This document shows positions 8,936-62,969 of a stretch of DNA of 64,000 nucleotides, piece after piece. Position numbers and translations under genes: made by a program. The notes under the pieces are model-generated. The model saw only the letters and a list, made by a program, of their open reading frames with translations. It searched no databases and was not told the origin of the DNA. This stretch comes from Bremia lactucae (Eukaryota; Oomycota; Peronosporomycetes; Peronosporales; Peronosporaceae), in NCBI RefSeq assembly GCF_004359215.1, contig NC_090623.1:595180-659179 (forward strand), given 5' to 3'. How positions within the stretch are numbered: the first letter of the stretch is position 1; the number at the start of each line of letters is the position of its first letter.

Positions 8936-9339
8936 ATATTGTCCACCGAGACGACAAGAAAACGGAGGTCCAGAACCCATGAATCTCTCGTATGTAGTGA
9001 ACGAGAAACCTCGCTTTTCAAATTACAAACGATTACAAAATGTAATCGTTTTAAGAAATGGACCACGACGCCTATCAGTGTAGTGCTCCACGGCCAGTGC
9101 CGAAAAACACAGCGCGAAAAGACCGACCTCTCGAAACTGCGGAGGACGCAGATCCGAACGCTGTCGCGAAATCGCAACGGCGAGGCGGACCGTAAGAAAC
9201 GGTCGGGATCAGTAGGTGTGGAGCGCCCTACTGATCCAGCATCGTCAAAACAAATCGCAGGCCTTCTGACGAAAGTTGCTCCTCATGTAGGTAATTGCCC
9301 CCAGCGAATGAGGTTAACCACATCACCCTGAAATACAAG

Positions 9340-11010
9340 TGTCAAATAAGTTGCCACTTAAGTCCTAGTCGATTGTGAGGCGTCAAATAATTCAGACGCC
9401 AATCGCTTGAAGATCGCGGACTCAAATATATTGAGCGCGACATCCCTCTAACGAGGATCACAGCGCGCCTAGCAACAGAAACACCTCAAATTGTAACGTA
9501 ATGTGTAGTTGGTATCTAATACACGTCAAAGGTAAACAGTACGATGGTGATTTCATCCTACTAGATTTGGATGACAAATTTGATGTCATCCTTGAAATTT
9601 AATGGCTCAGAATTGCGAGCCATGTACAAATTGGCAGCATAAAGGCGTGCCGTTGCCTGTCTCTTGTACATCAGATGGTCAGCTGATAATTGTCTTGGAG
9701 CGTCCACAAGCGTCTGGAAGCCGTACCAGTGAGTGCGGTGGCCTCAATTGTGGGTCGGTCGTTAGCATGACTGCAGAAGACCTCAGTGTGAATATTCAAC
9801 ACATTGTGGAGTTAGATCCCGACGGCTGTGCACAAGCACATGTAGAGTCAAGGTCCACCAATGTGATGTGGACATAGTTACCGACGGCTGTGCACAAACA
9901 CAGGCAGCGTCGAAGTTCGACCACTCGAATTTGTTGATGGCACGAAACACGGATGCTTACTTGAAAAACTACATCCAAGAAAGTTTAAAGCAGCCGTGTA
10001 TAAGAGACAGTGTGAAATTCCTAGATCGACTGGAGAGTCGATCGTAGAGTTCTCACAGCTAGAGGCAGTTGGGGAGGATACTCCCCAAATGATATCTGTG
10101 GGAATAAGTTTCCGGATGCTGTGGTCAAAGGTTCCCAGATATCTTTGGAAATACGTTCTAAAGAAGAAACGGAGACAATATATGTCTAAGTAAACAATTG
10201 ATCAAGTGTAGGCGCTCATACACTTGATCTAGTGGCACCTCCGGAGTCAACTTCGGAGACAGATCAATTGCCAACGGTAGAACGGAAACGGTTTTTGCGT
10301 GATCTGCGTTGTGGCAAATTCAAGCAGATTTACTTCTTGTAACAGATGACAACTACGTGACCGATATTCCGTCGACAATAAATTTTCTGAGAACGAACGG
10401 ATTCTCAGTGGCTCATCGATGAGAAATTTCGGATCAAACGTTTACGTCCCAATAGTGAGAGTGTTTGAAGACAATCCTTTATATAAAGATTTGATCGAAC
10501 TCAAGGATGTATTCCTGAGTCGGTACCGTGCGAGTTGCCTAACGATAAAGGCACTCGACCTGAAATATATCTGATCCAAACGCCGATACCACGAAAAGAC
10601 GTTATCATTGCTGGTATGTCAAAGAGTACTATCTTTTCGTCAATGGATCTGATGGATAAATTCTATCAGATCCTTATACGTGAACAAGATATTCCGAGCA
10701 CACTAGTAAGCACTTCAAGCGGTATGCTATGGGAGTATCTAGTCATGCCATAGGGACTTAGTAATGCCCCCTGCGGCATTTAACAGATGTGTAACCAATC
10801 TGTTGAGATCGATGCGGGATTTTTCACCGAGCTATTTCGATGACGTCTCGTTCATAGCAGAGCCATGAACGAGAAATCGGATATCAAAGTAAAGCACAAG
10901 TTGTATGCAAATCTCAAGAAGCGTAAATTCGCTGCAAGCGAACTACCACTCCATGGGTGCATCGTGTGTAAACACAGTGTACGCCCGGATCCAGAAAAGA
11001 TCAAGGCGAT
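9340..11010 (+). pseudogene. Family A protease and reverse transcriptase, copy 1
   Basis: The aspartic protease is recognisable as LVDCEASNNS near 9368, where the family has D-(S/C)-G-(A/S), followed by FDVILEI near 9578. The reverse transcriptase can be traced through DNPLYKDLIELKDVF (about 10472), RPEIYLIQTPIPRKDV (10558), SSMDLMDKFYQILIRE (10639) and SYFDDVSFIAEP (about 10835), which keeps F-D-D of the Y/F-x-D-D active site. Several stop codons interrupt the frame. From about 11025 an AT-rich, poorly matching stretch replaces part of the RT-RNase H connection. Confidence 0.75.
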
Positions 11011-11293
11011 CGCGGACTTTTTTTGGGTGAGATATTTGAGTTCTTTTTACATGAATTTTGCTTTTAAGTTTTATTTTACGTGCGGATTGGCCTGTGACAG
11101 TCGATTTGAAGGCTTTTTAAAAATACCTCGATTTAGCGGCGAACCTCTACAAGAATTCACGCAACTATCCCGAAATGACAGTACATATTTCTTCTTCAAT
11201 ATAAGAAAAAATGTAAAGTGGTCATGGAACGCTGCTGTCAGCGTTCCTTCGAGGGTATTAAGTAAAGCTTGATGTAACCGTCAATCCTGGCGA

Positions 11294-11690
11294 TTGCTGA
11301 CCAAGACCGACCTTTTCATGTGGTCTGTGACGCCAGCAATTTTTGCAATCGGCTGTGCGTTTATGCAATGTGACACAGACGGCGCAAAGCGCGTTGTATT
11401 TTATCAATCGCGTCACCTTCAACCAGCTAAAGGCAACTATCTAGTGCATGACAAGGAGCTCCTTGCCATAAAATACGCACTGCTAAGTTTAGGGTCTATC
11501 TCCCAAGAAATAGACCGTTCCTTGTATATACGGACCCTGCGTCTTTACGCACGGCTATAAGCAGTCCACACCTCTCGCATAATTATCTTCTTCGCGGTGT
11601 ATAACTTCTCAGTGGAATGTAAAACAGGAAGGCTCAACATCGTCGCTGATGGCCTTCGCGCCGGCCCGATTTGAGCCGGCTGCGCAAATC
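11294..11690 (+). pseudogene. Family A RNase H, copy 1
   Basis: The open frame 11294-11560 carries DLFMWSVTPAIFAIGCAFMQ (family: V-x-x-D-A-S-x-x-A-I-G-x-x-L) and NYLVHDKELLAIKYAL, the RNase H HDKEL block. The catalytic D of the DAS motif is replaced in the text TPAIF. The C-terminal part (VECKTGRLNIVADGL, about 11610-11655) lies in another frame, where the intact family reads EYKPG...NVLADALSRR. No active enzyme is expected. Confidence 0.75.
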
Positions 11691-11731
11691 AATAGTGAGC
11701 ATAATGCCACTGCTCAACAATAAGCGTTCCG

Positions 11732-12838
11732 TTGTCAGCATTACTCGACGACGTTGGAAGAGCTTATCAAGAAGATAAGGCTCTTAAAGGGTTGATAGTC
11801 TACCTTACAAATCCATCCCAGCAAAACTTAAGAGGATTGTTGAAATTGAATGAATCCTCAACAGATCGATACACAACACACAATGGGTTACTGTATACAC
11901 AGCCATTGCTGGCGACACACTTCGTGTCGTCATTCCCACCCATACTAATTTGCATCACGCATCATGTATGAGTACCACGATGCACCAATAGTGGCCATCG
12001 TGGATGTGAGAAGACCTATCTCACGATAAGCCGCGACTTATACTGGCCACGCCAGTATGAAATCGTTTGCAAGTACATACGTGCTTGCGAAGTTTGTCAA
12101 CGGATGGAGCCCAGTGCTTCAGCCCGTGATTCGTTGCAACCTCTGCCTGTTCCGGTAGAATGTGGGCAGTCCGTTTCGATGGACTTCGTCTTCGGATTCC
12201 CCAAAGACACCCTCAAGTATAATGGGTTCCTTGTTTCTGTTGATCATTTAAGCAAAACGGTACATCTTGCTGCCGTCTCGAAGTCGATCACAGCAAAAGG
12301 CTGTGTTCGGATCTTTGTTTATACTACAATTCGACTCCATGTATTACCCCGTGAACTGGTATCAGATCGAAACCCTGGATTCACGCCGGAATTTTGGCAA
12401 ACAGTGGTCAAGTCACTTGGAACACAGTTAAAATTGTCAATTTCTGATCATCCAGAAACATATGGTAGGATTGAGCGTGCAAACCGTATTCTCGAAGAGA
12501 TACTTCGCGAATACGTCCACTCTTTTAAGAGTTGGAGCGAGCTCTTGCCGATGGTAGAATTTGCCATGAACAATTTAGTACATGCTTCAACAAAGCATAC
12601 ACCGTTTTTCGTGAACGGATTACGCCATCCACGCCTCCCCACCGTGTTTGAGAGTAACTCTTATTTAACGGGAGGAGAGACTCGCTCGAGCAGACAATTG
12701 TCTAGCACTTGCTCACCACGCATTAGCTCTAAGGCAATGCGAAGGATACCAATGTTGAGTCAACTCACATTGAAATGGACAAATTCAGTTAGAACAATAA
12801 TGCTATTAAAGACTTGGATAACGATGCTGATAGACTAA
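11732..12838 (+). pseudogene. Family A integrase, copy 1
   Basis: The longest pol piece (12104-12838, 244 residues) is the integrase catalytic core. The first Asp lies in VSMDFVFGFP, the second in LVSDRNPGFTPEFW, and the Glu in GRIERANRILEEIL (usually G-Q-T-E-R-A-N-R). It is followed by FAMNNLVHASTKHTPFF, the conserved family block. The N-terminal zinc-binding region (about 11970-12100) is present but frameshifted. Integrase would insert the cDNA. All three acidic residues remain, but the frame is broken on both sides. Confidence 0.8.
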
Positions 12839-13478
12839 GCATCGAAAAAACAATATCATTAATGATATCGAGAATTCTCTCAAGAATGAGGAGATTGACA
12901 TCTCCGCAGTGCGAGCCGGTCACACTGAAAACAAAAATAAAATCGAGTCATCAGGTGGTTTCCTTTTGGCTAGAGACGCAGTGGTCCGTTTCGTACAGGA
13001 TTCCATCGCTGATGCGATGGTCCGACAGATACGGAACTCTAACAAAATAGAAGAGCAAACATACTTTCATTTATGGTGATTACCTAGTCCTTCTGTCTAC
13101 GCTAAACCTATCAAAATACGTGGTGACGAATGTAGGCAACAATAAATTACTGCCCAGGTATATCGGCGCATTTCGTGTAATACATCGCCAAGGCAATGCG
13201 TACACGATCGAGCTGTCTCGTACCATGCATACATATTCTACGTTTTGTGATGGGCGTCTCCGCCAGTACCATCAGTACGAAGCTTCTTCCGATTNAACGC
13301 TGTCGCGAAATCGCAACGGCGAGGCGGACCGTAAGAAACGGTCGGGATCAGTAGGTGTGGAGCGCCCTACTGATCCAGCATCGTCAAAACAAATCGCAGG
13401 CCTTCTGACGAAAGTTGCTCCTCATGTAGGTAATTGCCCCCAGCGAATGAGGTTAACCACATCACCCTGAAATACAAG

Positions 13479-15150
13479 TGTCAAATAAGTTGCCACTTAA
13501 GTCCTAGTCGATTGTGAGGCGTCAAATAATTCAGACGCCAATCGCTTGAAGATCGCGGACTCAAATATATTGAGCGCGACATCCCTCTAACGAGGATCAC
13601 AGCGCGCCTAGCAACAGAAACACCTCAAATTGTAACGTAATGTGTAGTTGGTATCTAATACACGTCAAAGGTAAACAGTACGATGGTGATTTCATCCTAC
13701 TAGATTTGGATGACAAATTTGATGTCATCCTTGAAATTTAATGGCTCAGAATTGCGAGCCATGTACAAATTGGCAGCATAAAGGCGTGCCGTTGCCTGTC
13801 TCTTGTACATCAGATGGTCAGCTGATAATTGTCTTGGAGCGTCCACAAGCGTCTGGAAGCCGTACCAGTGAGTGCGGTGGCCTCAATTGTGGGTCGGTCG
13901 TTAGCATGACTGCAGAAGACCTCAGTGTGAATATTCAACACATTGTGGAGTTAGATCCCGACGGCTGTGCACAAGCACATGTAGAGTCAAGGTCCACCAA
14001 TGTGATGTGGACATAGTTACCGACGGCTGTGCACAAACACAGGCAGCGTCGAAGTTCGACCACTCGAATTTGTTGATGGCACGAAACACGGATGCTTACT
14101 TGAAAAACTACATCCAAGAAAGTTTAAAGCAGCCGTGTATAAGAGACAGTGTGAAATTCCTAGATCGACTGGAGAGTCGATCGTAGAGTTCTCACAGCTA
14201 GAGGCAGTTGGGGAGGATACTCCCCAAATGATATCTGTGGGAATAAGTTTCCGGATGCTGTGGTCAAAGGTTCCCAGATATCTTTGGAAATACGTTCTAA
14301 AGAAGAAACGGAGACAATATATGTCTAAGTAAACAATTGATCAAGTGTAGGCGCTCATACACTTGATCTAGTGGCACCTCCGGAGTCAACTTCGGAGACA
14401 GATCAATTGCCAACGGTAGAACGGAAACGGTTTTTGCGTGATCTGCGTTGTGGCAAATTCAAGCAGATTTACTTCTTGTAACAGATGACAACTACGTGAC
14501 CGATATTCCGTCGACAATAAATTTTCTGAGAACGAACGGATTCTCAGTGGCTCATCGATGAGAAATTTCGGATCAAACGTTTACGTCCCAATAGTGAGAG
14601 TGTTTGAAGACAATCCTTTATATAAAGATTTGATCGAACTCAAGGATGTATTCCTGAGTCGGTACCGTGCGAGTTGCCTAACGATAAAGGCACTCGACCT
14701 GAAATATATCTGATCCAAACGCCGATACCACGAAAAGACGTTATCATTGCTGGTATGTCAAAGAGTACTATCTTTTCGTCAATGGATCTGATGGATAAAT
14801 TCTATCAGATCCTTATACGTGAACAAGATATTCCGAGCACACTAGTAAGCACTTCAAGCGGTATGCTATGGGAGTATCTAGTCATGCCATAGGGACTTAG
14901 TAATGCCCCCTGCGGCATTTAACAGATGTGTAACCAATCTGTTGAGATCGATGCGGGATTTTTCACCGAGCTATTTCGATGACGTCTCGTTCATAGCAGA
15001 GCCATGAACGAGAAATCGGATATCAAAGTAAAGCACAAGTTGTATGCAAATCTCAAGAAGCGTAAATTCGCTGCAAGCGAACTACCACTCCATGGGTGCA
15101 TCGTGTGTAAACACAGTGTACGCCCGGATCCAGAAAAGATCAAGGCGATC
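13479..15150 (+). pseudogene. Family A protease and reverse transcriptase, copy 2
   Basis: Same content as the copy at 9340-11010, with the same disabling stops, since the two copies are virtually identical. The F-D-D active-site block lies near 14974. Confidence 0.75.
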
Positions 15151-15432
15151 GCGGACTTTTTTTGGGTGAGATATTTGAGTTCTTTTTACATGAATTTTGC
15201 TTTTAAGTTTTATTTTACGTGCGGATTGGCCTGTGACAGTCGATTTGAAGGCTTTTTAAAAATACCTCGATTTAGCGGCGAACCTCTACAAGAATTCACG
15301 CAACTATCCCGAAATGACAGTACATATTTCTTCTTCAATATAAGAAAAAATGTAAAGTGGTCATGGAACGCTGCTGTCAGCGTTCCTTCGAGGGTATTAA
15401 GTAAAGCTTGATGTAACCGTCAATCCTGGCGA

Positions 15433-15830
15433 TTGCTGACCAAGACCGACCTTTTCATGTGGTCTGTGACGCCAGCAATTTTTGCAATCGGCTGTGCGTT
15501 TATGCAATGTGACACAGACGGCGCAAAGCGCGTTGTATTTTATCAATCGCGTCACCTTCAACCAGCTAAAGGCAACTATCTAGTGCATGACAAGGAGCTC
15601 CTTGCCATAAAATACGCACTGCTAAGTTTAGGGTCTATCTCCCAAGAAATAGACCGTTCCTTGTATATACGGACCCTGCGTCTTTACGCACGGCTATAAG
15701 CAGTCCACACCTCTCGCATAATTATCTTCTTCGCGGTGTATAACTTCTCAGTGGAATGTAAAACAGGAAGGCTCAACATCGTCGCTGATGGCCTTCGCGC
15801 CGGCCCGATTTGAGCCGGCTGCGCAAATCA
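15433..15830 (+). pseudogene. Family A RNase H, copy 2
   Basis: Identical in content to 11294-11690: the HDKEL block is kept and the catalytic DAS motif is altered. Confidence 0.75.
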
Positions 15831-15870
15831 ATAGTGAGCATAATGCCACTGCTCAACAATAAGCGTTCCG

Positions 15871-16977
15871 TTGTCAGCATTACTCGACGACGTTGGAAGA
15901 GCTTATCAAGAAGATAAGGCTCTTAAAGGGTTGATAGTCTACCTTACAAATCCATCCCAGCAAAACTTAAGAGGATTGTTGAAATTGAATGAATCCTCAA
16001 CAGATCGATACACAACACACAATGGGTTACTGTATACACAGCCATTGCTGGCGACACACTTCGTGTCGTCATTCCCACCCATACTAATTTGCATCACGCA
16101 TCATGTATGAGTACCACGATGCACCAATAGTGGCCATCGTGGATGTGAGAAGACCTATCTCACGATAAGCCGCGACTTATACTGGCCACGCCAGTATGAA
16201 ATCGTTTGCAAGTACATACGTGCTTGCGAAGTTTGTCAACGGATGGAGCCCAGTGCTTCAGCCCGTGATTCGTTGCAACCTCTGCCTGTTCCGGTAGAAT
16301 GTGGGCAGTCCGTTTCGATGGACTTCGTCTTCGGATTCCCCAAAGACACCCTCAAGTATAATGGGTTCCTTGTTTCTGTTGATCATTTAAGCAAAACGGT
16401 ACATCTTGCTGCCGTCTCGAAGTCGATCACAGCAAAAGGCTGTGTTCGGATCTTTGTTTATACTACAATTCGACTCCATGTATTACCCCGTGAACTGGTA
16501 TCAGATCGAAACCCTGGATTCACGCCGGAATTTTGGCAAACAGTGGTCAAGTCACTTGGAACACAGTTAAAATTGTCAATTTCTGATCATCCTGAAACAT
16601 ATGGTAGGATTGAGCGTGCAAACCGTATTCTCGAAGAGATACTTCGCGAATACGTCCACTCTTTTAAGAGTTGGAGCGAGCTCTTGCCGATGGTAGAATT
16701 TGCCATGAACAATTTAGTACATGCTTCAACAAAGCATACACCGTTTTTCGTGAACGGATTACGCCATCCACGCCTCCCCACCGTGTTTGAGAGTAACTCT
16801 TATTTAACGGGAGGAGAGACTCGCTCGAGCAGACAATTGTCTAGCACTTGCTCACCACGCATTAGCTCTAAGGCAATGCGAAGGATACCAATGTTGAGTC
16901 AACTCACATTGAAATGGACAAATTCAGTTAGAACAATAATGCTATTAAAGACTTGGATAACGATGCTGATAGACTAA
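15871..16977 (+). pseudogene. Family A integrase core, copy 2
   Basis: Same 244-residue core as copy 1 (16243-16977), with VSMDFVFGFP, LVSDRNPGF and GRIERANR. The one base change seen between the copies (codon at 16589) is silent, as both read H-P-E. Confidence 0.8.
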
Positions 16978-17258
16978 GCATCGAAAAAACAATATCATTA
17001 ATGATATCGAGAATTCTCTCAAGAATGAGGAGATTGACATCTCCGCAGTGCGAGCCGGTCACACTGAAAACAAAAATAAAATCGAGTCATCAGGTGGTTT
17101 CCTTTTGGCTAGAGACGCAGTGGTCCGTTTCGTACAGGATTCCATCGCTGATGCGATGGTCCGACAGATACGGAACTCTAACAAAATAGAAGAGCAAACA
17201 TACTTTCATTTATGGTGATTACCTAGTCCTTCTGTCTACGCTAAACCTATCAAAATAC

Positions 17259-18047
17259 GTGGTGACGAATGTAGGCAACAATAAATTACTGCCCAGGTAT
17301 ATCGGCGCATTTCGTGTAATACATCGCCAAGGCAATGCGTACACGATCGAGCTGTCTCGTACCATGCATACATATTCTACGTTTTGTGATGGGCGTCTCC
17401 GCCAGTACCATCAGTACGAAGCTTCTTCCGATTCCAGAATACACCGGAACGGTCTAGGGCATCCGCCAAAGCCTGATGGTTTCGAGCGAAAGCCTTATTA
17501 TCTCGGAACAGAGTCTAATTCTCTTGAATTAAACAATTCACTCTTTTTTCCAAGGAATAGATCTTCTGACAAGATGTCACCAGCTTGTTTTAAAGCGCCT
17601 GATGTGTCCTATCGTTCGCCAGTTGATCCGTCGCAACTTGCGCGAAATTCCTCAACTGGTCACGAGAAACATTATCAACCGTCACCGCTAACTCGTGGCG
17701 ACAGGATCGCTCGTGATCAAGATCCTCTCTTAAATAATGAAGTGGGTGATCCAAATCACATTGTTGATTTGGGTTCGTCAAACGATGCGGACCCGACCAT
17801 TCCTTTCCCTCCACGTCCGTTGACGGATTCGAGTAATATAAAGCTTCTTCTTGTTGAAGCTTCTCGAACCACCGTGAGTAATGGGGTTCGAACGAGTTAT
17901 CTCGTTCGTTGGCGAGAGCATAAACCCTCGCACGACCTTTGGGAACGTCACTCCTTACTGATGTTAGACGTTCCGGATCTCGTCTTGCAGTGCGACGAGA
18001 CCCATCCACCTTGCCAGAAAGTCCTTCGTGCGCTTCCCGCGCTCTAA
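17259..18047 (+). pseudogene. Family A integrase C-terminus, linker and chromodomain
   Basis: This 262-residue frame begins with the integrase C-terminal GPF/Y-like block (LLPRYIGAFRVIHRQGNAYT) and the DGRLRQYHQYE turn. A Pro/Ser/Asn-rich linker follows. The end is a chromodomain: LLLVEASRTTVSNGVRTSYL, VRWREHKPSHDLWERH and DLVLQCDETHPP. Chromodomains in chromoviruses are known to bind histone marks and guide integration. The aromatic cage is only partly visible. The linker and chromodomain lie opposite the coiled-coil part of the antisense gene at 17377-19118. Confidence 0.8.
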
Positions 18048-19118
18048 AAAGGATTGGAGGTTCTCAATCCTTTGATGCATCTCGAAAGAGATGAGAGTCC
18101 TTCAATAGGATCTTTGAGGGAACTTGCTACCTTAGGGGGCATGACCCACACCCTTATAACAGCATAGGCATGAGTCCCCCCTACGAGAGGCAAGGAATCC
18201 CTGCCTCTCTCGATAAACGGTGCAACTTATAGCGTGCACCGACTGCGGTATATTTCTCAAATCGCTTGCGGAAAGCATTTAGCTTGTCAAGGTAGATCTC
18301 ACGGCCTATGTTTTGTACATTCTGTACAAAGGCTGTCCAAGCTTGGAACAAAGGCTTGACATCCTTTACTCGTTTGCAAGTGTACCGCCAATACTGGTAT
18401 AAGGAATCGATAAAGAATTCCGTTTCATCCTCACAAGGCTTGTGAAGCCTGGATGAGTCGAATTACGGAATATGATGTCGATCGTTGGTCATACCAGACC
18501 AACGATTTAGGTTATCCTTAGTGGGCAACCAAGGCCTCTTTTTAGGAGCGAAACGCAACGTGTTGTAGTCCCTCTCCTGTTGGCTCATGCTAACGTGAAT
18601 TTGGCCTTCTAAGCTATCGCTAAAGTCACTCATTTCCTGGTGATGGAAGCTAGCACCACTTTTCTTTGCGACCACTTAGTTCATGGTAACGCATATTAAC
18701 GTCACCAAAGTGATCATCGCCCACGGAGTCAGCTAATGATGACTCCCCACCAAAGAGGTCCGACCAGTCGAATAACTCGTCATCACCTCTCTGGTTGTCA
18801 CGTTAGAACCTTACGGCTTAACAGATTCGGCCCCGGGTGATCCGGCGGCCTTTCACTAGACACTGAGTCGGACGATGCCGGTTACATGGTCCTGTCACCT
18901 ACAAATTGGTATAGCAGGTGACTTGTCACCGTCACCTGCACTGTCACTGACAGATGACATGTTCGAGTCACCTCCAATGGAAGCTGGAGGTGAAGAATTC
19001 CCCGCAGTAGACGCATTATCGTCTACTGAAACATTTCATTACCAACAGCTGCACTGATCCGTGCAGCTGCCATCTTTGCGGCATCACGGACCACGCGCAT
19101 AGACTTGTTAAGCGCCAT
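17377..19118 (-). pseudogene. Antisense gene of family A (unknown function), broken
   Basis: Read on the minus strand from an ATG at 19118. It has an Ala/Lys/Arg-rich start (MALNKSMRVVRDAAKMAAAR), a Ser/Asp/Gly-rich segment (ASTAGNSSPPASIGGDSN), and a conserved block at about 18450-18220 (CKRVKDVKPLFQAWTAFVQN; EKYTAVGARYKLHRLSREAG; IPCL). A coiled-coil part follows (17590-18009: REDLDHERSCRHELAVTVDN), then LFRDNKAFARNHQALADALD and a stop at 17377. Several frame changes are needed, so this copy is dead. The same blocks occur in order in A3 and D. The C-terminal third lies opposite pol, so part of its conservation there could be passive. I recognise no known family. Confidence 0.6.
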
Positions 19119-22271: not shown

Positions 22272-22272
22272 N

Positions 22273-23899: not shown

Positions 23900-24301
23900 T
23901 ATAGATGAGCGATTACCCGTCACACGAAAAGCCCGTGACGCGATGGCAAGCGCACAGATAAACAAAAAGAGTATGCGGACCGAAACGGTCGCAAAAACAA
24001 TGATCGCTTTAGAGCGGGTGAAAAAGTACTATTAAGTACTGCTACCCTACCTAAGAATGCAATTTCGTTACTACCTGGAGATACTACGGAGTTGTTGCCG
24101 CGTTTCATTGGGCCCTTTACGGTGGTAGAAGAGGTTCGAGACCTAAATTATAGAATCACCCTTCCCTCGTATGTGAAGACGCACCCCGTATTTTACGTGG
24201 GTCGTCTGAAACGTTATGTAGACCCAAATGAGGTTTCATACCCTCATTCGCTTAAGGAGACCGACGGTAACGCGACTGTGAGTCGAGCGTCATTTCGATA
24301 A
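23900..24301 (+). pseudogene. Family B integrase C-terminus
   Basis: The GPY/F-type module is visible as LLPRFIGPFTVVEEVRDLNY and HPVFYVGRLKRYVDPNEVSY, preceded by a DERLPVTRKARDAMASAQ-like helix in another frame. No chromodomain follows. In family B the frame stops shortly after this module, unlike families A, C and D. Confidence 0.7.
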
Positions 24302-24359
24302 GGGAGTCGGTGAAGGTGAAAAGCTTTTAGCCGAAAGACTCCTTCTACCACCGTATGTA

Positions 24360-25722
24360 TTCGGAGATCGAGAAACATCACACGAGTAACGCGGATCGCT
24401 CAGCATTATCTTCTCCAAAAGCTTCAAGCGAGTCTTCAGGCGCTCATAACCTTGGCGATCTTCGCTCGGGCATCATAAGGATCCGAGATCAGTCGCAGAA
24501 CTTGACCTTCGGGATCCGCAATACGTCGTTAGACAGCGCTTAAATCGTGCGACTGAACGAACGAGGGTAAGGCAGCCGCGAGTAGGTGGGCGAGATCGCC
24601 ACTTCTATCGGGCGCCGCTTGTACTGATGGATGCGGGTGGGAATTAACGCTTCCTTGTTGAGAGGTTGATTGCGCACCGCTTCATAATAGTATTGAGGTA
24701 GAAGTGTCAAATCCTCGTCTAATGAGGGGGATATTCGAAGATGTTCGACTCTTGGGAACCGATACCCTACGTATTGATGTGCTCGGATTGATGACTGCCT
24801 GAAAGAGCTCCCGCTGTGACCTCTTCGCTAGTTTCAAATGGACAAGCAAAAGTAGCGTAGTGAGAAGAAACAGGGGTACAGTACCGCCATGATTTCTTTC
24901 ACACGCAGGCGAGCGAAATTAATTCGCTGCGACCGTTATTTCCTCGCATCGTTATGCGGGTGAATGGGGCGCGTGAATTCCGCCTCGTAGTAGTTGGGCG
25001 TTCATTTGAACGCAACACGACCGGGATCGGGATCTTACGCCCAAGCGATTTCCTCTGAGCCGCATCATAGACGCCATAATAATTATGTGCGTCTACAATA
25101 GCACGCTCTAGGAGCGACGCTCTTGGCCCGTTGGCACGAGCCATTCAGATGGAGGGGGCATAAGTGGTTGCCACCCCTCACATAGCCACGTTCGATACGA
25201 CTGGCTTGTGACACCGACTGAGCACGCTCACGTGTCGTCGGCAACATTGCATTTAGGCTCCTCTATGTCAGAACCATTGTGAATAGTGGCCTGAGCAAAG
25301 GACGTTGTGGTTTTACCAAACGGAAAAGCAGCTGCATCTTTACGGGCAGCGCTTTCATGAATGGTCGCTGCGCTAGCCAGCGCAGACGACGAGACAGCAT
25401 TGGAATACATTGTTGCCAACAAGAAAATTTTGATGGGCGAAAATGCACCATCACTCTTCCTCATTAGCTCGCTTTACTCATCACTTCTATAAAGTGATGG
25501 TAGCGGTGTCGATCATTGTAGTCTACAATGAGCGACAGATCGACACTTCACTGTGAACGTGGGATGGACCATTAAGCCCAGCTAGCGCAACAGTAGCAGT
25601 GGCTGTGGGCGTTGTAACTGTGGCACTGGGCGACGGCGGCGCGTCAACGCGGCGCATGCGCAACGCGCGTGATTCAGTGGGAGTCTTCGCAGATGACCCA
25701 GCAACATTGTCCCTTTTAGGTA
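24360..25722 (-). pseudogene. Antisense gene of family B in element B1, broken
   Basis: Minus-strand relic of the same protein as at 58479-59861. The start reads LPKRDNVAGSSAKT, with ATA in place of the ATG present in B2 (MPPKRGNVGGSSAKT). Further pieces are AAFPFGKTTTSFAQATIHNG (25228-25464) and GPRASLLERAIVDAHNYYGV (24899-25144). The coiled-coil relic RRIADPEGQVLRLISDPYDA lies near 24500. Frameshifts and stops separate them. The function is unknown. The position between pol and the 3' LTR, opposite strand, matches B2. Confidence 0.6.
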
Positions 25723-25866
25723 GTATATTCGGCTCCGTCTAAGACACAGGTAGCAAGAGTGAAGGGGAGAACTAAGCGGCGCGTGAAGCAGCTCGCCGTT
25801 CCTCTGTCCTCTTTGACGAATTTGACGAATTTGCAAAATGTAAATTCATTCTTTAAAGGGCGGTGG

Positions 25867-37337: not shown

Positions 37338-37779
37338 TCTAACGGGGCACTACGACTTGTACTGCTTCAGTACAAGTCCACTTCTCACTGCTTCAGTTGC
37401 GATTGGTGCCTTACATTATTTCACGTACACTAGTACGTGCAGAGGAAGACCTATCTTTAAGGTAACTAGCTTAAAGAGGGTTAAATGAAAACTGTATTAA
37501 GATACTTAAGTATCTCTTCTATCTATCTTGTAAATGCTAACTTAATTATAATCTGATACTAAACATGCAATTGAATTCTTATCTGTATCTCTCTTTTGTT
37601 TATCTCTACAGCTGATTAGTCTGCGGAATAAATAGATTTAATGGTCTATACCTATTTATGATAAGAATTCTGCACATTACTACATAAAGTAATATCCTCA
37701 AATATTATCTACCTTTTAGATAATATATTAATTAACAACCTTTAAGTGTTAATTTCATGTAACGATACACCCCGTTACA
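37338..37779 (-). repeat. LTR_D, solo, minus orientation
   Basis: The ends are TCTAACGGGGCAC and ACCCCGTTACA, closely similar along its length to the LTR at 60235-60678. Flanks CTTGG and CTTGA agree at four of five bases, a probable target duplication. It interrupts or truncates element C. Confidence 0.8.
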
Positions 37780-46104: not shown

Positions 46105-47800
46105 ATGGCGACCAATAAGTCTGTGCGCGTGGCTCGTGCGGCCGCAAAGCTGGCATATGCACGGATCAGTGCAACTGTTAAAAGACAAATGTTTCAGTAG
46201 ACGCTCATGCGTCTACTGCGGGGAATAAGTCACCTAATACTCTCATTGTATGTGACTGGGGTATGTTATATGTTGATAGCATTGCAGGTGACGGTGACAA
46301 GTCACCTGCTACACAAATTGTAGGTGACTGGTCCAAGTCACCGTCATCGCCCGACTCAGTGACTATTGTGAAGGGCTGAGTCCGTTAAGCCTTTGGCTTC
46401 TAACGTGACAATGAAAGAGGTGATGACGAGGTTGTTCGACTCGTCGGACCTTTTTGGTGGGGAGTCATCTCATGATGACTCCATAGGCGACGATCGCTCT
46501 GGTGACGTTAGTATGCGCCACCCGGAACTAAGTGACCGTGAAGGAAAGAGTGCTGGTAGTGGTGCTAGTTTACATCAACAGGAAAAGGGATTCTAGGAAT
46601 CGCTCGAAGGGCCAAATTAGCGTTAGCGTTAATATGAGCCAATAGGAGAGGGACCGCAAACCGTTGCGGTTCTCTCCTGAAATTGGCCTCGGTTGCTCTC
46701 TAAGAGTGACAAATTCGTTGGTCTGGTTGACCAACGATCGAAATAATAATCCGTTATTTGATTCATCCAGGCTCCACAAGCCTGGTGGGGACAAAACAGA
46801 ATTCTATACCGATGCCAGTAAAAGGCATCGTGTTACACTTGTAAACGGGCAAATGATGCACCGACTACGTTCCGTTTCTCGAACCGTTCACGGTAGCATC
46901 CAGCTTGTCAAGCCAGACCTCACGGTCTATGCTTTGTACATTCTGTACGAAGGCTGTCTAAGCTGGGAACAAAGGATTGACACGCTATAAGCTGCACTGT
47001 TTGTCTAGAGAGGCAGTGATACCTTGCCTCTCAGGTGGGACTCATGTCCATGCTGTCTCAAGGGTGCAGGTCATGCCCCTAAGGAAGCATATTCCTTTGA
47101 AGATCCTCATGAATGACGCTCATCTTTTGCGAGATGCGCCAAGGGATTGAGAACCTCCAATACCCTTACGAGCTCGGAAGCGCTCATTCTCCGATGGACC
47201 TTCTGTCGAGGAAGATGGGTCTCGTCGTACTGAAAGACGAGACCCGGAACGTCCAACATCAGTTGGGAACGAGGTTCTTAACTATCACGCGAGGGTTGAT
47301 TTCCTTGCCAACGAACGATATAATTCGTTTAAACCCCACTTAAGCTCACGGTGGTTCGAGAAGCTTTCAACATGAGAACGCGTCTCACCACTCGAATCCG
47401 TCTATGGATGTGGAGGTGGAGAAAAATTTGAGTTCGCCTTGTTTGACGAGCCCAAATCAACATCGCGATTAAAATCACATCCTTCGAAATTTAAGCGAGG
47501 ATAGTGATCATGAGCGATCCCGTCTCCAAGTGTTTGCGGGACGGTCGATAGTGTATCCCGTGACCAGTTGATACATTGTGCGCAAGTTGCGACTGATCAA
47601 CTGACGAACGAGGGGACACATTTGTCCCTTTAAAACGAGCTGGCGACAGTTCGTCCGAAGATCTCTTCCTTGGAGAAAGAGTTGATTGTCTGGTTCGTGA
47701 GAATCAGACTCTGTTCCGAAACCATTACGCTTTGGCTCGGACCATCAGGCTTTGGCAGATGCCCTAGACCGTTCCGGTGTTATCCGGGAACGGAAGAAGC
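46105..47800 (+). pseudogene. Antisense gene of family A in element A3, broken
   Basis: It starts MATNKSVRVARAAAKLAYAR at 46105, close to the A1 version. Ser/Asp-rich pieces follow: ASTAGNKSPNTLIVCDWG, then 46393-46596 with RLFDSSDLFGGESSHDDSIG. The conserved block near 46990-47030 reads RYKLHCLSREAVIPCL. Coiled-coil relics at about 47540-47700 read VSRDQLIHCAQVATDQLTNE and NELATVRPKISSLEKELI. At least four frame changes are needed. It lies on the strand opposite to pol of A3, between integrase and 3' LTR, as in A1. No known family is recognised. Confidence 0.6.
47205..47350 (-). pseudogene. Chromodomain relic of element A3
   Basis: The minus strand shows TNYIV-like and DVPGLVFQYDETHP pieces matching the A1 chromodomain end (DVPDLVLQCDETHP). 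Frameshifts and a stop interrupt it. Confidence 0.5.
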
Positions 47801-56780: not shown

Positions 56781-56987
56781 GGGCCCCTCAGTATACTAAG
56801 TGCGAAAGAGGGACATAGTTTCGTCTATATGACGATGACCCATTACGGTATCATCTCAAAGACTGAAACTTGCCCTAGTGACCCTGCCAGTTTAGCAGTG
56901 GTCAATAAAACTACGCCTTATGACCGACCTCTTGGCGGTATCATAGGCGAGTAAAATGCTAAAAGCGTAAGCGAGGCTCAACGCTTT

Positions 56988-57539
56988 GTGGATGAGCGAT
57001 TAGCCATTACACGAAAAGTCCGTGACGCAATGGCAAGCGCACAGGACAAGCAAAAAGAATATGCGGACCGAAATGGTCGCAAAAACAATGAACACTTCAG
57101 AGTGGGTGAAAAAGTACTATTAAGTACTGCTACCCTACCTAAGAATGTAATTTCTGTACTACCTGGAGGTACTACGGAGTTGTTGCCGCGTTTCATTGGG
57201 CCCTTTACGGTGGTAGAAGAGGTTGGAAACCTAAATTATAGGGTCACCCTTCCTCCGTATGTGAAGACGCACCTTGAAATTTACGTGGGTCGTCTGAAAC
57301 GGTATGTAGACCCAAATGAGGTCACATACCCCCAACCGTCTAAAATGACCGACGGTGACCCCGACTGGGAGTCGAGCGTCATCCCGGTGAGGGAGACGGA
57401 GAAGTCGAAAAACTATCAGCCGACCGACTTCCCCCCACCACGAACAGGACTCGGAGAGCGAGGGACATCACGCCAGCAACGCGGATCCCTCAGCATTATC
57501 CGTTCGAAAAGGTCCAAGATAGTCTTCAGGCGTTCATAA
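56988..57539 (+). pseudogene. Family B integrase C-terminus, copy 1
   Basis: A 183-residue open frame: DERLAITRKVRDAMASAQDK, LLPRFIGPFTVVEEVGNLNY and YVGRLKRYVDPNEVTYPQPS. It ends in a Pro/Arg/Ser-rich tail without a chromodomain. The last 124 bp overlap the end of the antisense frame at 57416. It is classed as broken because the upstream pol is not open. Confidence 0.75.
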
Positions 57540-57846
57540 CCCTGACGAGCCTTCGCTCGGACATCAACGAGATCCGAGGTCAATCGTGAGACTTGACTCT
57601 CGAGATCTGCAATACATCGTTCGGCAGCGCTTAACGCTTGCGACTGAACGGACGAAGGTAATGCAGTCGCGATTAGGTGGGCAAGTTCGCCACTCCTATT
57701 GGGTGCCGCCTGCACTGCTGGATGCGGGTGAATATAAACTCTCCCTCTTTAAAAGTGGCTTGCCCACCGCTCCGTGAGGTTAAGGTATCAGATCCTCGTC
57801 TAATGGAGAGGTTGCCCGAAGAGTTTTGACTCTTGGGAACCAATCG
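57416..57846 (-). pseudogene. Extra copy of the antisense gene C-terminus
   Basis: The duplicate block carries a second copy of the last 99 residues (coiled coil and SPSPVRGGGKSVG tail), cut off at the N at 57847. Confidence 0.75.
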
Positions 57847-57847
57847 N

Positions 57848-58909
57848 CCCTCAGTATACTAAGTGCGAAAGAGGGACATAGTTTCGTCTATATGACGATG
57901 ACCCATTACGGTATCATCTCAAAGACTGAAACTTGCCCTAGTGACCCTGCCAGTTTAGCAGTGGTCAATAAAACTACGCCTTATGACCGACCTCTTGGCG
58001 GTATCATAGGCGAGTAAAATGCTAAAAGCGTAAGCGAGGCTCAACGCTTTGTGGATGAGCGATTAGCCATTACACGAAAAGTCCGTGACGCAATGGCAAG
58101 CGCACAGGACAAGCAAAAAGAATATGCGGACCGATATGGTCGCAAAAATAATGAGCACTTCCGAGTGGGTGAAAGAGTATTATTAAGTACTGCTACCCTA
58201 CCTAAGAATGTAATTTCTGTACTACCTGGAGGTACTTCGGAGTTGTTGCCGCGTTTCATTGGGCCCTTTACGGTGGTAGAAGAGGTTGGAAACCTAAATT
58301 ATAGGGTCACCCTTCCTCCGTATGTGAAGACGCACCTTGTAATTTACGTGGGTCGTCTGAAACGGTATGTAGACCCAAATGAGGTCACATACCCCCAACC
58401 GTCTAAAATGACCGACGGTGACCCCGACTGGGAGTCGAGCGTCATCCCGGTGAGGGAGACGGAGAAGTCGAAAAACTATCAGCCGACCGACTTCCCCCCA
58501 CCACGAACAGGACTCGGAGAGCGAGGGACATCACGCCAGCAACGCGGATCCCTCAGCATTATCCGTTCGAAAAGGTCCAAGATAGTCTTCAGGCGTTCAT
58601 AACCCTGACGAGCCTTCGCTCGGACATCAACGAGATCCGAGGTCAATCGTGAGACTTGACTCTCGAGATCTGCAATACATCGTTCGGCAGCGCTTAACGC
58701 TTGCGACTGAACGGACGAAGGTAATGCAGTCGCGATTAGGTGGGCAAGTTCGCCACTCCTATTGGGTGCCGCCTGCACTGCTGGATGCGGGTGAATATAA
58801 ACTCTCCCTCTTTAAAAGTGGCTTGCCCACCGCTCCGTGAGGTTAAGGTATCAGATCCTCGTCTAATGGAGAGGTTGCCCGAAGAGTTTTGACTCTTGGG
58901 AACCAATCG
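57848..58909 (+). repeat. 1062-bp duplicated block, copy 2
   Basis: Partner of 56785-57846. It continues uninterrupted into the antisense gene and LTR_B. Confidence 0.95.
58051..58602 (+). pseudogene. Family B integrase C-terminus, copy 2
   Basis: Same 183-residue frame as copy 1 with a few substitutions. It overlaps the last 124 bp of the antisense gene tail to tail. Confidence 0.75.
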
Positions 58910-59861
58910 GTATCCTACATATTGACGTGCCCGGCTTGATGGCTGCCTATGAAAAGAAGCACCAGCTGAGGCCACTTCGCTAGTCTCAAATGGACTAGCA
59001 GAAGCAGCGTTGTGAGAAGAAACGGGGGGTACAGTACCGTCCATGATTTCTTTCACACGCAAGCGGGCGAAATTAATTCGTTGCGACCGCTGTTTCATCG
59101 CATCGGAATGCAAATGAATGCGGAGCAAGAATTCCGCCTCGTATCGGTCGGGAGTTTCATTTGAACGCAACACGACCGGGATCGGGAAAATACGCCCAAG
59201 CGATTTTCCCTGAGCCCTCCATGATTGAAAGACGCCATAATAATTATGTGCGTCGACAAGAGCGCGCTCTAGGAGCGACGCTCTTGGCCCGTCTAAACGA
59301 GGTCATTTAGATGGAGGGGGCATCTTCGGAATGCCACCCGTCGCATAGCCGTGTTCTAAACGACTGGCTTGTCACACCGACTGAGCACGTTCACATGTCG
59401 TCGGCGGAGCTTTCGGCTCAGGATCCTCTATGTCAGAACCATTATGGATAATGGTTTGATCATAAGGCGTTGTGGTTTTACCCAACAAAGAAGCGGCTGC
59501 GCCTTTATGGGCAGCGCTCTCAATTATTTTCGCTGCGCTATCCAGCGCAGACGACGAGACAGCATTCGTAAATGTTGCTGTCTCCATGTCGTGAGCCATG
59601 AGAGAAGTTGTTATGGGCAATGATGCGCCATCATCCTTCCTCATGAGCTCGTTGTCCGCATCACTACTATGAGGTGACGGCAACGGTGTCGACTCATTGC
59701 AGTCGACAATGAACGACGGATCAACATCTTCACTAATAAAGTGGGATGGATCCTTAAGCCCCGTTAACGCGACAGCCGCAGTAGCTGTCGGCGTTTCGGC
59801 AAAGTCATTGGACGCGTGTCTTCGCAGACGACCCACCAACGTTGCCCCTTTTAGGTGGCAT
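58479..59861 (-). pseudogene. Antisense gene of family B in element B2
   Basis: The minus-strand start ATG is at 59861 (MPPKRGNVGGSSAKT). An Ala/Ser/Asp-rich part (59839-59372) includes DPSHFISEDVDPSFIVDCNE and SLLGKTTTPYDQTIIHNGSD. A more globular part (about 59330-58736) includes GPRASLLERALVDAHNYYGV and AEFLLRIHLHSDAMKQRSQR. The coiled-coil end (58778-58479) includes AAERCIADLESQVSRLTSDL then YERLKTILDLFERIM and RSPSPVRGGG. Three or four frame breaks occur. No known family or catalytic motif is recognised. An RNA- or particle-associated accessory role would be speculation. Confidence 0.65.
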
Positions 59862-59988
59862 ATTATGCTCTGTATAAGACACAGGTAGAAAAAGTGAAAG
59901 AGAGTACCAAGCGGCGCGTAAAGCAGCTCACTGTTCCTCTGTCCTCTTTGGCTAATTTCAAAACGTAAATTCGTCCTTAAAGGGGGGG

Positions 59989-60234
59989 TGTAAAGGGCTA
60001 AAGATGTCCTAATGCTACACAGTTCCCGTTAAGTACACTTTGTGTGCTTAATGGGGTGGTCAATTACTTGAATTGCGTCACAAGTGTGAACCACACTCAA
60101 GTAGACCCACCACTTGGGTGTGATTCATATTGTGACGCACTATTGTGTATGTGATGCGCGTAAAGGCATTAACATTAGGAGGGATGACGCCTAGCGTCAT
60201 CCGTTACGCGAGCTATTTAGAAAGATACGCTGGC
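59989..60234 (+). repeat. LTR_B, 3' LTR of B2, truncated
   Basis: TGTAAAGGGCTAAAG follows the purine tract AAAGGGGGGG. It matches the copy at 25867 until GATACGCTGGC, where LTR_D begins. Confidence 0.85.
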
Positions 60235-60678
60235 TGTAACGGAGCACTATGACTTGTACTGTTTCAGCACAAGTCCACTTCGCACTGCTTCAGTTGCGAG
60301 TGGTGCCCTTCGTCAATTGACGTATACTGTACGTGCAGATGAAGACTTCTCTTAAGGTAATTAGCTTAAGAGGGTAACATGAAAACTGTATTAAATATAA
60401 TTAAGTGTATCGTGTTCTATTTTTGTGAATGCTAACTGATTTATATTCTAATCCTAAACATGTGAATGAATTCTTATCTGTTACTCTCTCTTTGATTACT
60501 CCTACAGCTGATTAGTCTGCGGAATAAATAGGTATAAATAGTCTATACCTATTTATGGATAAAAATTCTAAATATTACTATATAAATAAATATCCTCCAA
60601 ATTTTATCTACCTTTCAGATAATACATTAATTAACAACCTTCAAGTGTTAATTTCATGTAACGATACAACCCGTTACA
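60235..60678 (-). repeat. LTR_D, 3' LTR of element D
   Basis: The ends TGTAACGGAGCAC and AACCCGTTACA, and the interior, match the solo copy at 37338-37779. It cuts LTR_B of element B2. Confidence 0.85.
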
Positions 60679-61774
60679 TCACCCCTCCTTAAACGACAAT
60701 CACGCTGACTGTCATTGGATGGAGTGGTCATCATGTGACCCCTTAATTTTTAAAATGATGTTCATTAGTCAGATCCATGATTTTAAATTCCATCGCATGA
60801 AGAATCAACTCATGCGGGATGACGATAGTGCTGCGCCTTCGGCTGCGGTTCGTACAGCCACGGGTGACGCACTGCAATCTCTTGCGGCAGACGGAACGTC
60901 TGCCGTAGTATCTTCTTCTCGCGCAATACTAGATGTCGCGGGTGCACGTGGTGATTCACCACGTGAATACGACCCCTCTTTGGAGGTCGACTACGAATAT
61001 GAGTCGGACGAAATGGCCGACTCGAGTAGAATGGAACAGTCATTTGATAAATGTCAGGCAGCTGACTATGAGCCTTCGAATGAGAGGGCTCATTCTGATT
61101 GACGAGTTTATAGTCTATTTGGACCCGACGATGAGGATGATCCCTCATCGCCTGTTCCGCTTCTGGCACGGTCATCTGCACGTGTTTCTGTGGAAGGTGA
61201 TGACGATGGCGCAAGCCATCGTTAAATAAGTCCTTGTTGTCCCTTTGCTTCAGTGGGTACCACTCAGGGGAGTGAAGACAGTAAAATGTCTCATCTCGCC
61301 CCTGATTAGAAGCCGTGGCTTTTGTCAGAACGGCTTATCAATAGCTTGTCTTGAGAAACGACTCCTCACAATAAATCTTCCTTATTTATTGCGACAAAGC
61401 TACATGGCCTTGATCCCAGCGCGATGAACTTTCGCGCTGAGAAAGATTTTTATTCCCGATGCTTTTCTTAAGCATCGATGGTTTAGTTGTAATAATAAGC
61501 GAGATAAAGTTTTGCTTATGCAAGCCTGGAGCGCGTTCATTCGCAATGTCAAAGACATTGGACGAAGCCTGGCTACAAAAACTTAACTCAAATCGCGGTA
61601 AATTTGAGAAAAGAATTTCAAATGGTGCAAAGTATAAATTGCATCGGTTGTCATGTGAGGCTGGGCTTCCATGCCTCACGTGGGGTGATCCCTGTCCGTG
61701 ATGTGTAGACAACTCGAAGAGGGTAAAAGGGGATGTCGATTCCCTTTTTTCGCCCTGGGGGAGGGCTCGCATCT

Positions 61775-62251
61775 CTATTGAGATGCGTGACGCGATTGAC
61801 GTTTTGCGATCGATTTACATGCGCCAGTGGCGCGTGTTTTCCGATGGGCCTTCTGAATTATCGGGTGGGTCTCGTCATACTGACGGACAAGGCCCTTAAC
61901 GTCAGCAACCAGCCGGAAACGAGGCTCCCAGCTGTCATGCGAAGGGGGGCAACCACACCAGCGAACAAGATAACTCGTTCGCTGCCCCTTCACATCACGG
62001 TGGTTCTGGATATGTTCCACAAAAAAACGCTGACCACCGTGGGAATCCACCAATGGTTGTGGTGGAGGAGGGAAAATTAGATCGTAACCGTATGTCGGAT
62101 CAAGAGTCGAGGATCGACAAAATCGATCACTTCCTCCATGATTTGGAGGAGGGACTTGAGCACGAGCGCGGCAAGCGTCGCTCGTTGGAGCAGACGGTGC
62201 AAGCTCACCATATCGAACGATTGGAAGACCATCGATAGGTGCGTTCTCCAT
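61775..62251 (-). pseudogene. Element D linker and chromodomain
   Basis: A 158-residue open frame at the end of pol. A Pro/Ser-rich linker is followed by a chromodomain, RFFVEHIQNHRDVKGQRTSY, LVRWCGCPPSHDSWEPRFRL and VKGLVRQYDETHP, with the conserved V-x-W and W-E-P. It is the clearest family A/D-type chromodomain in the window. It ends in a basic tail (RKTRATGACKSIAKRQSR). Chromatin targeting of integration is the known role of such modules. Confidence 0.85.
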
Positions 62252-62418
62252 GCTGGAGTACGAACGGAAATATCCCGCTCTTCGTGATGAGCTGTCGTCA
62301 GCTCATCGCAGTTTCTAGGAAACTCGGAACCGGCTGAGAAACTCCAGATTCAGCATGAGAACCTGGTTCGCGATCACAAGAATCTCTTCAGGATTTTTGA
62401 AATGGGTGGTCAGATCCT

Positions 62419-62497
62419 TTGGTCGGCTCCGCCCGTACCATCAGTACGCGGTCCTCAAAAGAAACCGCGTACTGATGGTACGGGCGGAGCCGACCAA
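62419..62497. repeat. Perfect 34-bp inverted repeat with 11-bp spacer
   Basis: Arms 62419-62452 and 62464-62497 are exact reverse complements around CCTCAAAAGAA. The right arm is the normal pol sequence for the RLRPYHQY turn. The left arm is an inverted copy of it. Confidence 0.95.
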
Positions 62498-62969
62498 CGT
62501 AAAACGTAGGATGCGTTCGCATCCTAGGAGGCAATTATATTGTGTACGCATTGCCTGTGCGATGCAGTACACGGAAAGGCCCAATGAACTTGGGTAGTAG
62601 TTACTGCTACCCACATTAGTGACAACACGCTTAGATAGTATTACCGTAGAGAGTAGCACTAGATCATTAATTTAAAATGAATGAACATTTGCTCTTTCAT
62701 GTTTGACTGCATTCCGTTTCTGGCGGTCATGTCGATATCTTCGACATCGACATCACTCGCGTCGTTGTTAACTTTTACGCGTGATGAGCATGAGCCAGAA
62801 GTGGTTTTGCTCGTGCGAGTCCACCTCCCCCCTTAAACAAGGGGATCCCTCTTATTAAGTGGGTATGCGAGGATGGCGATAGCCCTTCACGAAGAACGGT
62901 GTATGCGTTGTAGACGCATGTACCGAATTTTTGATGGCGAATCCGACCATCGGTAAAGACTCGCTCCAA
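62441..62969 (-). pseudogene. Element D integrase C-terminal part
   Basis: The frames 62969-62775 (ERVFTDGRIRHQKFGTCVYN, overlapping the end of the core in a different frame) and 62659-62441 (LLSTVILSKRVVTNVGSSNY) correspond to the GPY-type module of A1 (VVTNVGNNKLLPRYIGAF). The sequence reaches the RLRPYHQY turn and then meets the palindrome. It is frameshifted. Confidence 0.65.

What the first reader, a model, noticed from the sequence alone, without database searches (positions are those of the whole stretch)
57377..62509. Conserved antisense gene in three gypsy families, between pol and the 3' LTR
Elements A1 (17377-19118), A3 (46105-47800), B1 (24360-25722), B2 (58479-59861) and D (60797-62509) all carry a long frame opposite to gag-pol at the same place, with the same order of parts: Ala/Ser/Asp-rich N-terminal half, a central block (RYKLHRLSREAG-IPCL in A and D) and a leucine-rich coiled-coil C-terminus. 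The families have different LTRs, so shared position argues for an old, maintained accessory gene. Additional antisense frames are described in some plant Ty3/gypsy elements; I do not know of a described function for this oomycete form. All copies here are broken.
Basis: partly seen in the sequence, partly recalled or inferred. Interest (0 to 1): 0.75.

Follow-up and report, generated by a model that had tools for sequence, protein, structure and literature searches.

The report
Antisense gene in oomycete jumping genes
Several families of copy-and-paste jumping genes in this water-mould genome carry an extra protein gene written backwards between their enzyme gene and their end repeat; related intact proteins occur in downy mildews, so it looks like a real, maintained gene whose job is unknown but is probably in the nucleus.

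Summary
In families A, B and D the frame opposite gag-pol is open in the family although each window copy is broken: scored column by column over the copies held, the antisense frame has no majority stop inside the gene; the other frames have 3-45 each per reference piece, except pol's own frame where it overlaps the gene in A. The start codon lies about 127-149 bp from the inner end of the 3' LTR where that end was found, and the gene ends within about 35 bp of the same integrase SH3 motif. Full-length predicted relatives of 480-593 aa exist; the named ones are from Peronospora and Hyaloperonospora only. Between A and D, outside pol, changes sit at third codon positions (0.39/0.31/0.65). Inside families constraint is clear in D, weak in B, near absent in A. 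In A and D about 670-735 bp are coded on both strands. A/D and B proteins are probably distant relatives. Best reading: an accessory nuclear coiled-coil protein of the antisense kind known in plant gypsy elements, with no detected sequence relation to them. Function is inferred, not shown. New variant of a known kind.

The parts
60812..62509 (+). D: antisense gene (broken copy), ATG to stop
   Evidence: ATG at 60812 aligned to relatives; stop after GGADQRKT 62483-62506; ORF pieces
61382..61860 (+). D: central helical block with the KYKLHRLSREAG...CLTWGDPCPCC motif (61630 onward); limits approximate, outside pol except for about the last 85 bp
   Evidence: L052 frame mapped at 90.7%; motif position; helices in the model, pLDDT by blocks of ten 59-87
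62110..62458 (+). D: coiled-coil part of the antisense gene, opposite the pol linker between IN-SH3 and chromodomain
   Evidence: motif position; helix 453-550 of the model, pLDDT by blocks of ten 81-97
62459..62506 (+). D: basic C-terminal tail KKPRTDGTGGADQRKT, its end opposite the IN-SH3 motif
61775..62302 (-). D: C-terminal piece of pol ending in the stop at 61775-61777; chromodomain at 61871-62020
   Evidence: Pfam PF00385 E=6.8e-11
62478..62504 (-). D: integrase SH3-like motif FYVGRLRPY, opposite the end of the antisense gene
   Evidence: Pfam SH3_Tf2-1 weak, E=0.066
60237..60678 (-). D: 3' LTR (limits from a similar copy at 37340-37779, taken to be a solo LTR)
   Evidence: self-comparison, 85% identity
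58403..59861 (-). B2: antisense gene (broken: in-frame stops between 59303 and 59374, and a frame change in 58736-58811); ATG 59861
58018..58602 (+). B2: C-terminal piece of pol with IN-SH3 motif 58342-58368; no chromodomain found; overlaps the antisense gene by about 200 bp
   Evidence: Pfam SH3_Tf2-1 E=1.7e-11
24252..25726 (-). B1: antisense gene, degraded (start ATA)
   Evidence: 78% to the L015 frame
17377..19118 (-). A1: antisense gene (broken), ATG 19118, stop 17377
17190..18047 (+). A1: C-terminal piece of pol with SH3_Tf2-1 (about 17226-17411) and a weak chromodomain match (about 17877-17963); overlaps the antisense gene by 671 bp
46105..47800 (+). A3: antisense gene (broken); ATG 46105, 144 bp from the LTR end at 45961
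57347..57846 (-). duplicate of the B2 antisense 3' part, probably an unmerged assembly overlap next to the N at 57847

Best explanation
It is a real accessory protein gene of these Ty3/gypsy elements, read from the strand opposite gag-pol and convergent with pol. It starts about 130-150 bp inside the 3' LTR and ends at the integrase SH3 motif. Shown by sequence: a family-wide open frame, full-length relatives in other oomycetes, third-position excess outside pol (A versus D, and inside D), and two open frames over the 3' end of pol in A and D. Inferred: the product is a dimeric nuclear protein (basic NLS-like ends, acidic Ser-rich stretch, helical centre, with a conserved H...C-x6-C-x2-C motif in A/D that could bind zinc, and a long coiled coil), made from a promoter of its own or of the 3' LTR. 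It would act in trans on the element's own expression or silencing, as proposed for other antisense genes of retroelements. Gene with protein-level function: about 0.9. Nuclear regulatory role rather than another role: about 0.4.
For: Stop tallies by column. ATG at the aligned place in 28 of the 30 B loci whose start region aligned (of 38), 10 of 10 D and 8 of 10 A loci (L046's is a doubtful alignment); L009 and L035 repeat L001 and L006. LTR-to-start spacing: D 133-135 bp in 9 of 10, B 127-140 in 18 of 28 (8 not found, 2 outliers), A 141-149 in 5 of 11 (4 not found, 2 outliers). Relatives at 36-90% identity. A versus D, 106 codons outside pol: differences 0.386/0.309/0.653 at codon positions 1/2/3. 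Inside D outside pol, variants shared by at least 2 copies 15/13/33, binomial p=0.0007, while singletons are even, 87/84/93; in the D coil 5/4/12. D pol runs in one frame through the SH3 motif and 223 codons beyond it in 4 of 10 copies, and A1's 212 codons beyond, so pol really overlaps the gene. Coiled coil and central helices in the model. No sense-strand frame stays open over the region outside pol.
Against: Inside families A and B the codon-position signal is weak or absent: A middle 46/46/43 and A C-terminal 51/38/47 for variants shared by at least 2 copies; B outside pol 114/105/125, or 117/107/138, p=0.03, with two dropped copies put back, one of them a near-duplicate. B1 versus other B copies dN/dS 0.65 against 0.75 and 0.80 in control frames. 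No transcript data. DNA context of the foreign relatives was not seen, so antisense placement is shown in this genome only. No known domain and no fold match, so the functional step rests on composition. An INR-like promoter motif sits 33-39 nt upstream in 26 of 27 B copies and at -34 or -35 in 7 of 10 D copies, but copies are related, chance is 8% (B) and 18% (D), and A has it in 2 of 11.
Confidence: 0.72

Rival explanations
1. The antisense transcript, not the protein, is what matters: convergent transcription makes antisense or double-stranded RNA that limits or tunes the element, and the open frame is incidental.
For: Review PMC7264820 raises this for plant antisense ORFs. PMC3522703 (passages) reports sense and antisense small RNAs from gypsy and other elements of the oomycete Phytophthora infestans. 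The gene is convergent with pol and overlaps it by 200-735 bp, so dsRNA would form if both strands are transcribed (geometry).
Against: It does not explain an open frame of about 490-570 codons, third-position excess or full-length relatives at 40-60% identity. Both can be true together.
Confidence: 0.1
2. It is a protein of the particle or integration step (for example nuclear import of the preintegration complex, or target choice with the pol chromodomain) rather than a regulator.
For: Basic NLS-like ends and a coiled coil fit an adaptor; the gene is convergent with and partly overlaps the chromodomain end of integrase in A and D. PMC7264820 discusses import as one role.
Against: B has the gene but no chromodomain was found in its pol piece. 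Expression from the other strand would separate its dosage from Gag-Pol.
Confidence: 0.3
3. Chance antisense frame, kept open by the codon make-up of pol on the other strand.
For: In A and D about the last 40% lies opposite pol, and across the chromodomain the A-D pattern follows pol's wobble (0.229/0.433/0.207; antisense identity 18 of 50, pol 33 of 51).
Against: Most of the gene has no coding frame opposite: outside pol in D and B every sense frame has majority stops, none staying clear for more than about 300 nt in D, and the A-D constraint there is on the antisense frame.
Confidence: 0.03
4. A host gene or nested element captured in antisense orientation, recently and separately in each family.
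For: No transposon function is known for it; no homologue with a named domain was found.
Against: Same start and end landmarks and similar order of parts in three families; weak but collinear A/D-B profile similarity (score 31.9 without the coil against at most 23.8 in 30 column shuffles, plus the DPxLxVDYxxES motif). No relative named as a cellular gene came up in 3 protein searches, which have limited reach and do not show genomic context.
Confidence: 0.1

Closest known systems
Antisense additional ORFs between pol and 3' LTR (aORF-3R) of plant Ty3/gypsy elements: Grande gene23, RIRE2, Retand, PvRetro13 (PMC7264820, parts 1 and 2 of 3 seen; PMC11963269, passages and Discussion seen)
   Same: Orientation, position, open frame across copies, no clear homology to known proteins; some products are nuclear, predicted DNA-binding, or have an SMC-type domain.
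   Different: No sequence relation detected (no PF04195 match; the plant proteins themselves were not compared); oomycete hosts; gene runs 670-735 bp into pol in the chromodomain families; pol-to-LTR gap about 1.1 kb in D against Retand's 2.9-6.6 kb.
Boty/BcGypsy1 brtn of Botrytis cinerea (passages of PMC8365987 and the review seen; the original paper not seen)
   Same: Antisense extra gene in a non-plant gypsy element.
   Different: Fungal; sequence not compared here.
HBZ-type antisense genes of HTLV (passages in PMC11963269 and PMC7264820; domain details of HBZ recalled)
   Same: Antisense gene expressed from the 3' LTR end; nuclear protein with acidic part and dimerising helix (recalled).
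   Different: No bZIP domain match here; no homology shown; resemblance in layout only.

Membership tests
aORF-3R (antisense additional ORF between pol and 3' LTR) | Frame antisense to gag-pol | tested here: met
[quoted passage not shown]
   Starts about 130-150 bp from the LTR end, ends near IN-SH3; overlaps the pol end by about 200 bp in B2, 671 in A1 and 735 in D
aORF-3R (antisense additional ORF between pol and 3' LTR) | Present in all or most copies | tested here: inconclusive
   Frame open in the family and many copies (150 B-type matches; 89 D-type matches from 78 scored places; lower bounds), but elements were collected by the gene itself, so the share of elements that carry it was not counted
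aORF-3R (antisense additional ORF between pol and 3' LTR) | Transcribed from an antisense promoter | not testable with these tools
   no RNA data; INR-like motif only
Retand TRP28 proteins | PF04195 domain | tested here: not met
   not among matches at E<=1 for 10 relatives (HMMER's filters drop most matches above about 0.1) nor at E<=0.1 for the window pieces
HBZ-like antisense bZIP protein | bZIP DNA-binding domain | tested here: not met
   no bZIP match at E<=1 for 10 relatives; coiled coil present
Chromovirus (host element) | Chromodomain at the pol C-terminus | tested here: met
   D E=6.8e-11; A1 0.0016, below Pfam's cut-off; B2 none found
Tyrosine recombinase core-binding domain (UniRef name of P0019) | Core-binding domain | tested here: inconclusive
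   no Pfam match for P0019; no fold match for P0018, but the domain was not folded alone

The most novel reading that the evidence does not exclude
A fast-evolving family of antisense nuclear coiled-coil proteins is shared by chromodomain and non-chromodomain gypsy elements of downy-mildew-type oomycetes. It acts in trans to control LTR expression or host silencing. In the chromodomain families it forms a long two-strand gene in which each strand's folded module (coiled coil, chromodomain) lies opposite the other strand's disordered linker.
Probability: 0.3. Interest if true: 0.75.

Novelty: new variant of a known kind. Interest (0 to 1): 0.6.

Why it matters
In the papers seen, antisense accessory genes of LTR elements are described mainly from flowering plants and have no settled function. 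Another eukaryotic group with its own version, kept in several families and species, argues that such genes do useful work for the element. The long overlap with the chromodomain end of pol gives a eukaryotic case of two-strand coding with many copies to study. It also suggests that a set of 'uncharacterized' proteins, and one 'RxLR effector candidate', in downy mildew proteomes are transposon genes.
Full report
Setting. The window lies in G000:C14:595180-659179, a genome of 115.9 Mb in 220 contigs. Its name is not given; the named relatives of the gene are all downy mildews, so a downy-mildew-type oomycete is an inference. D and A3 lie on the minus strand, A1, B1 and B2 on the plus strand.

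Is it there? Yes. All five window copies are broken by stops or frame changes. The fragment at 57416-57748 is a duplicate: 56785-57846 and 57848-58909 are 99.2% identical and separated by one N, like three other N-joined places, which looks like unmerged contig ends.

Is it more than chance? The genome holds many copies: 150 scored matches to the B block, 40 candidates scored each for A and D DNA and 89 matches from 78 scored places for the D-type protein, all lower bounds. I aligned the copies held to natural reference frames and asked in each codon column whether at least half of the copies have a stop. B (35 copies): antisense frame 1 column of 494, which is the gene's own stop, against 15, 20, 20, 25 and 38 in the other frames; with two dropped copies put back, 15-37. 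D (10 copies): 0 of 457 against 10-45, and with the second reference 0 of 347 against 5-28. A (10 loci and A3): no internal column in three pieces (184, 221 and 222 codons, the last with its own stop), against 3-18, 5-12 and 5-17 in the other frames, pol's frame in the last piece having 0. Individual copies carry scattered stops, as expected for dead copies; several are open over long stretches, for example 525 codons including the upstream part in L015.

Anatomy. Where the LTR end could be recognised, the start codon is 133-135 bp (D, 9 of 10), 127-140 bp (B, 18 of 28) or 141-149 bp (A, 5 of 11) from it. For D this agrees with LTR limits 60237-60678 taken from a similar copy, and for A3 with an LTR end at 45961. 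At the other end, the A1 and D genes stop just past the integrase SH3 motif on the other strand (FCDGRLRQY 17382-17408; FYVGRLRPY 62478-62504), and the B genes about 35 bp before reaching it (IYVGRLKRY 58342-58368; FYVGRLKRY 24191-24217). Pol of D, and weakly of A1, goes on to a chromodomain, so in A1 671 bp (17377-18047) and in D 735 bp (61775-62509) are read on both strands; B2 overlaps by about 200 bp. In the D alignment pol's stop (9 of 10 copies) and the antisense stop (10 of 10) are 701 bp apart, with no majority stop between them in either frame. Pol runs in one frame through the motif and 223 codons beyond it in 4 of 10 D copies (L050, L054, L056, L058), and 212 codons beyond it in A1; the other A and D copies are interrupted or lack a clear motif.

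Relatives. L015's natural frame (493 aa) found 15 proteins, L051's frame 51, and a profile of 24 rows 37, of which 8 had been seen before. Named ones are from Peronospora effusa, P. farinosa, P. matthiolae, P. destructor and Hyaloperonospora arabidopsidis; one P. matthiolae cluster stands for 524 sequences. Many rows have no name. No Phytophthora name appeared, but each search scored only about 8,000 candidates. Full-length relatives share a start (mostly MRCA..KAA in A/D; MPPKRG in B), an acidic Ser-rich stretch, a central block, a linker, a coiled coil and a basic or SR-rich tail. A profile comparison of the two types without the coil scores 31.9, against at most 23.8 in 30 column shuffles; its second match is the motif DPxLxVDYxxES, found by pattern in 6 of 15 B-type and 6 of 80 A/D-type proteins, fragments included. 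hhalign's own probability is only 23% with the coil and 11% without, so common descent is likely, not proven.

Selection. A versus D in 106 codons outside pol: 0.386/0.309/0.653. Inside D outside pol, variants shared by at least 2 copies 15/13/33 (p=0.0007) against even singletons 87/84/93: constraint while the element lived, neutral decay afterwards. The same test is weak for B: at least 3 copies 39/42/56, p=0.04; at least 2, 114/105/125, not significant. With L025 and the near-duplicate L027 put back it is 42/46/68, p=0.005, and 117/107/138, p=0.03, but 23/27/36, p=0.06, for at least 4; the near-duplicate inflates 'shared' variants. For A it is mostly absent (N-terminal piece 30/42/51, p=0.04; the other two pieces none). 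In the two-strand part of D the coil shows 5/4/12 and the chromodomain stretch 2/2/2; between A and D the chromodomain stretch follows pol's wobble (0.229/0.433/0.207) and the coil stretch is mixed (0.579/0.431/0.544). These tests use related copies, so p-values are indicative.

Structure. For A/D (P0018, 24-row alignment) mean pLDDT is 59.5, with helices of moderate confidence between 199 and 364 and a long helix at 453-550. The linker with pLDDT under 50 (about 371-448) falls opposite the chromodomain, and the long helix opposite pol's linker (positions; that pol's linker is disordered is inferred from the lack of a Pfam domain there, not modelled). No fold match stands out. The conserved H304, C314, C321 and C324 of P0018 could be a zinc site; this is inference.

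How it may work. Basic ends, a coiled coil, antisense position and start close to the LTR suggest a dimeric nuclear protein made independently of Gag-Pol. The review PMC7264820 states that Grande's gene23 product is nuclear and transcribed from a promoter upstream of the gene, and PMC11963269 proposes a DNA-binding regulatory role for Retand's TRP28 proteins. I take a trans-acting regulator as most likely (about 0.4), ahead of an integration or import adaptor (about 0.3) and an RNA-level role (about 0.1). An INR-like promoter motif lies 33-39 nt upstream of the ATG in 26 of 27 B and at -34 or -35 in 7 of 10 D copies; in P. infestans inferred transcription starts lie 32-144 nt upstream, median 50 (PMC3599244, passages). 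Chance is 8% and 18% per copy, copies are related, and A has it in 2 of 11.

Verdict. A real antisense accessory gene of gypsy elements in a downy-mildew-type oomycete; the kind is known from plants and one fungus, the sequence family and the long overlap with the chromodomain end of pol appear new within the searches made.

Noticed in passing
13295, 22272, 33571, 57847: Single Ns beside near-identical direct duplicates (for example 9157-13294 and 13296-17433, 99.98%; less alike at 22272): probably unmerged contig overlaps, so some 'tandem' repeats in the window are assembly artefacts.
   Followed up: partly
P0094 and P0019: Hyaloperonospora arabidopsidis proteins named 'RxLR effector candidate' and 'Core-binding domain-containing' match this transposon gene; the names look like annotation slips.
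   Followed up: partly
62419-62497: Near-palindrome of about 80 bp (90%) inside the D copy, over the IN-SH3 motif and the antisense C-terminus; many D copies show a shorter 31-36 nt inverted match at the same place.
   Followed up: no
L043 and L044 (G000:C1:6122335-6124090 and 6108357-6110112): Two almost identical A copies in opposite orientation about 12 kb apart: likely a local inverted duplication.
   Followed up: no
A, B and D LTR ends: In the three copies printed (one per family) the LTRs seem to share the terminal TGTAAC; integrase pieces of the families are 64% (A-D) and 51% (B-D) identical over 124 and 134 residues.
   Followed up: partly
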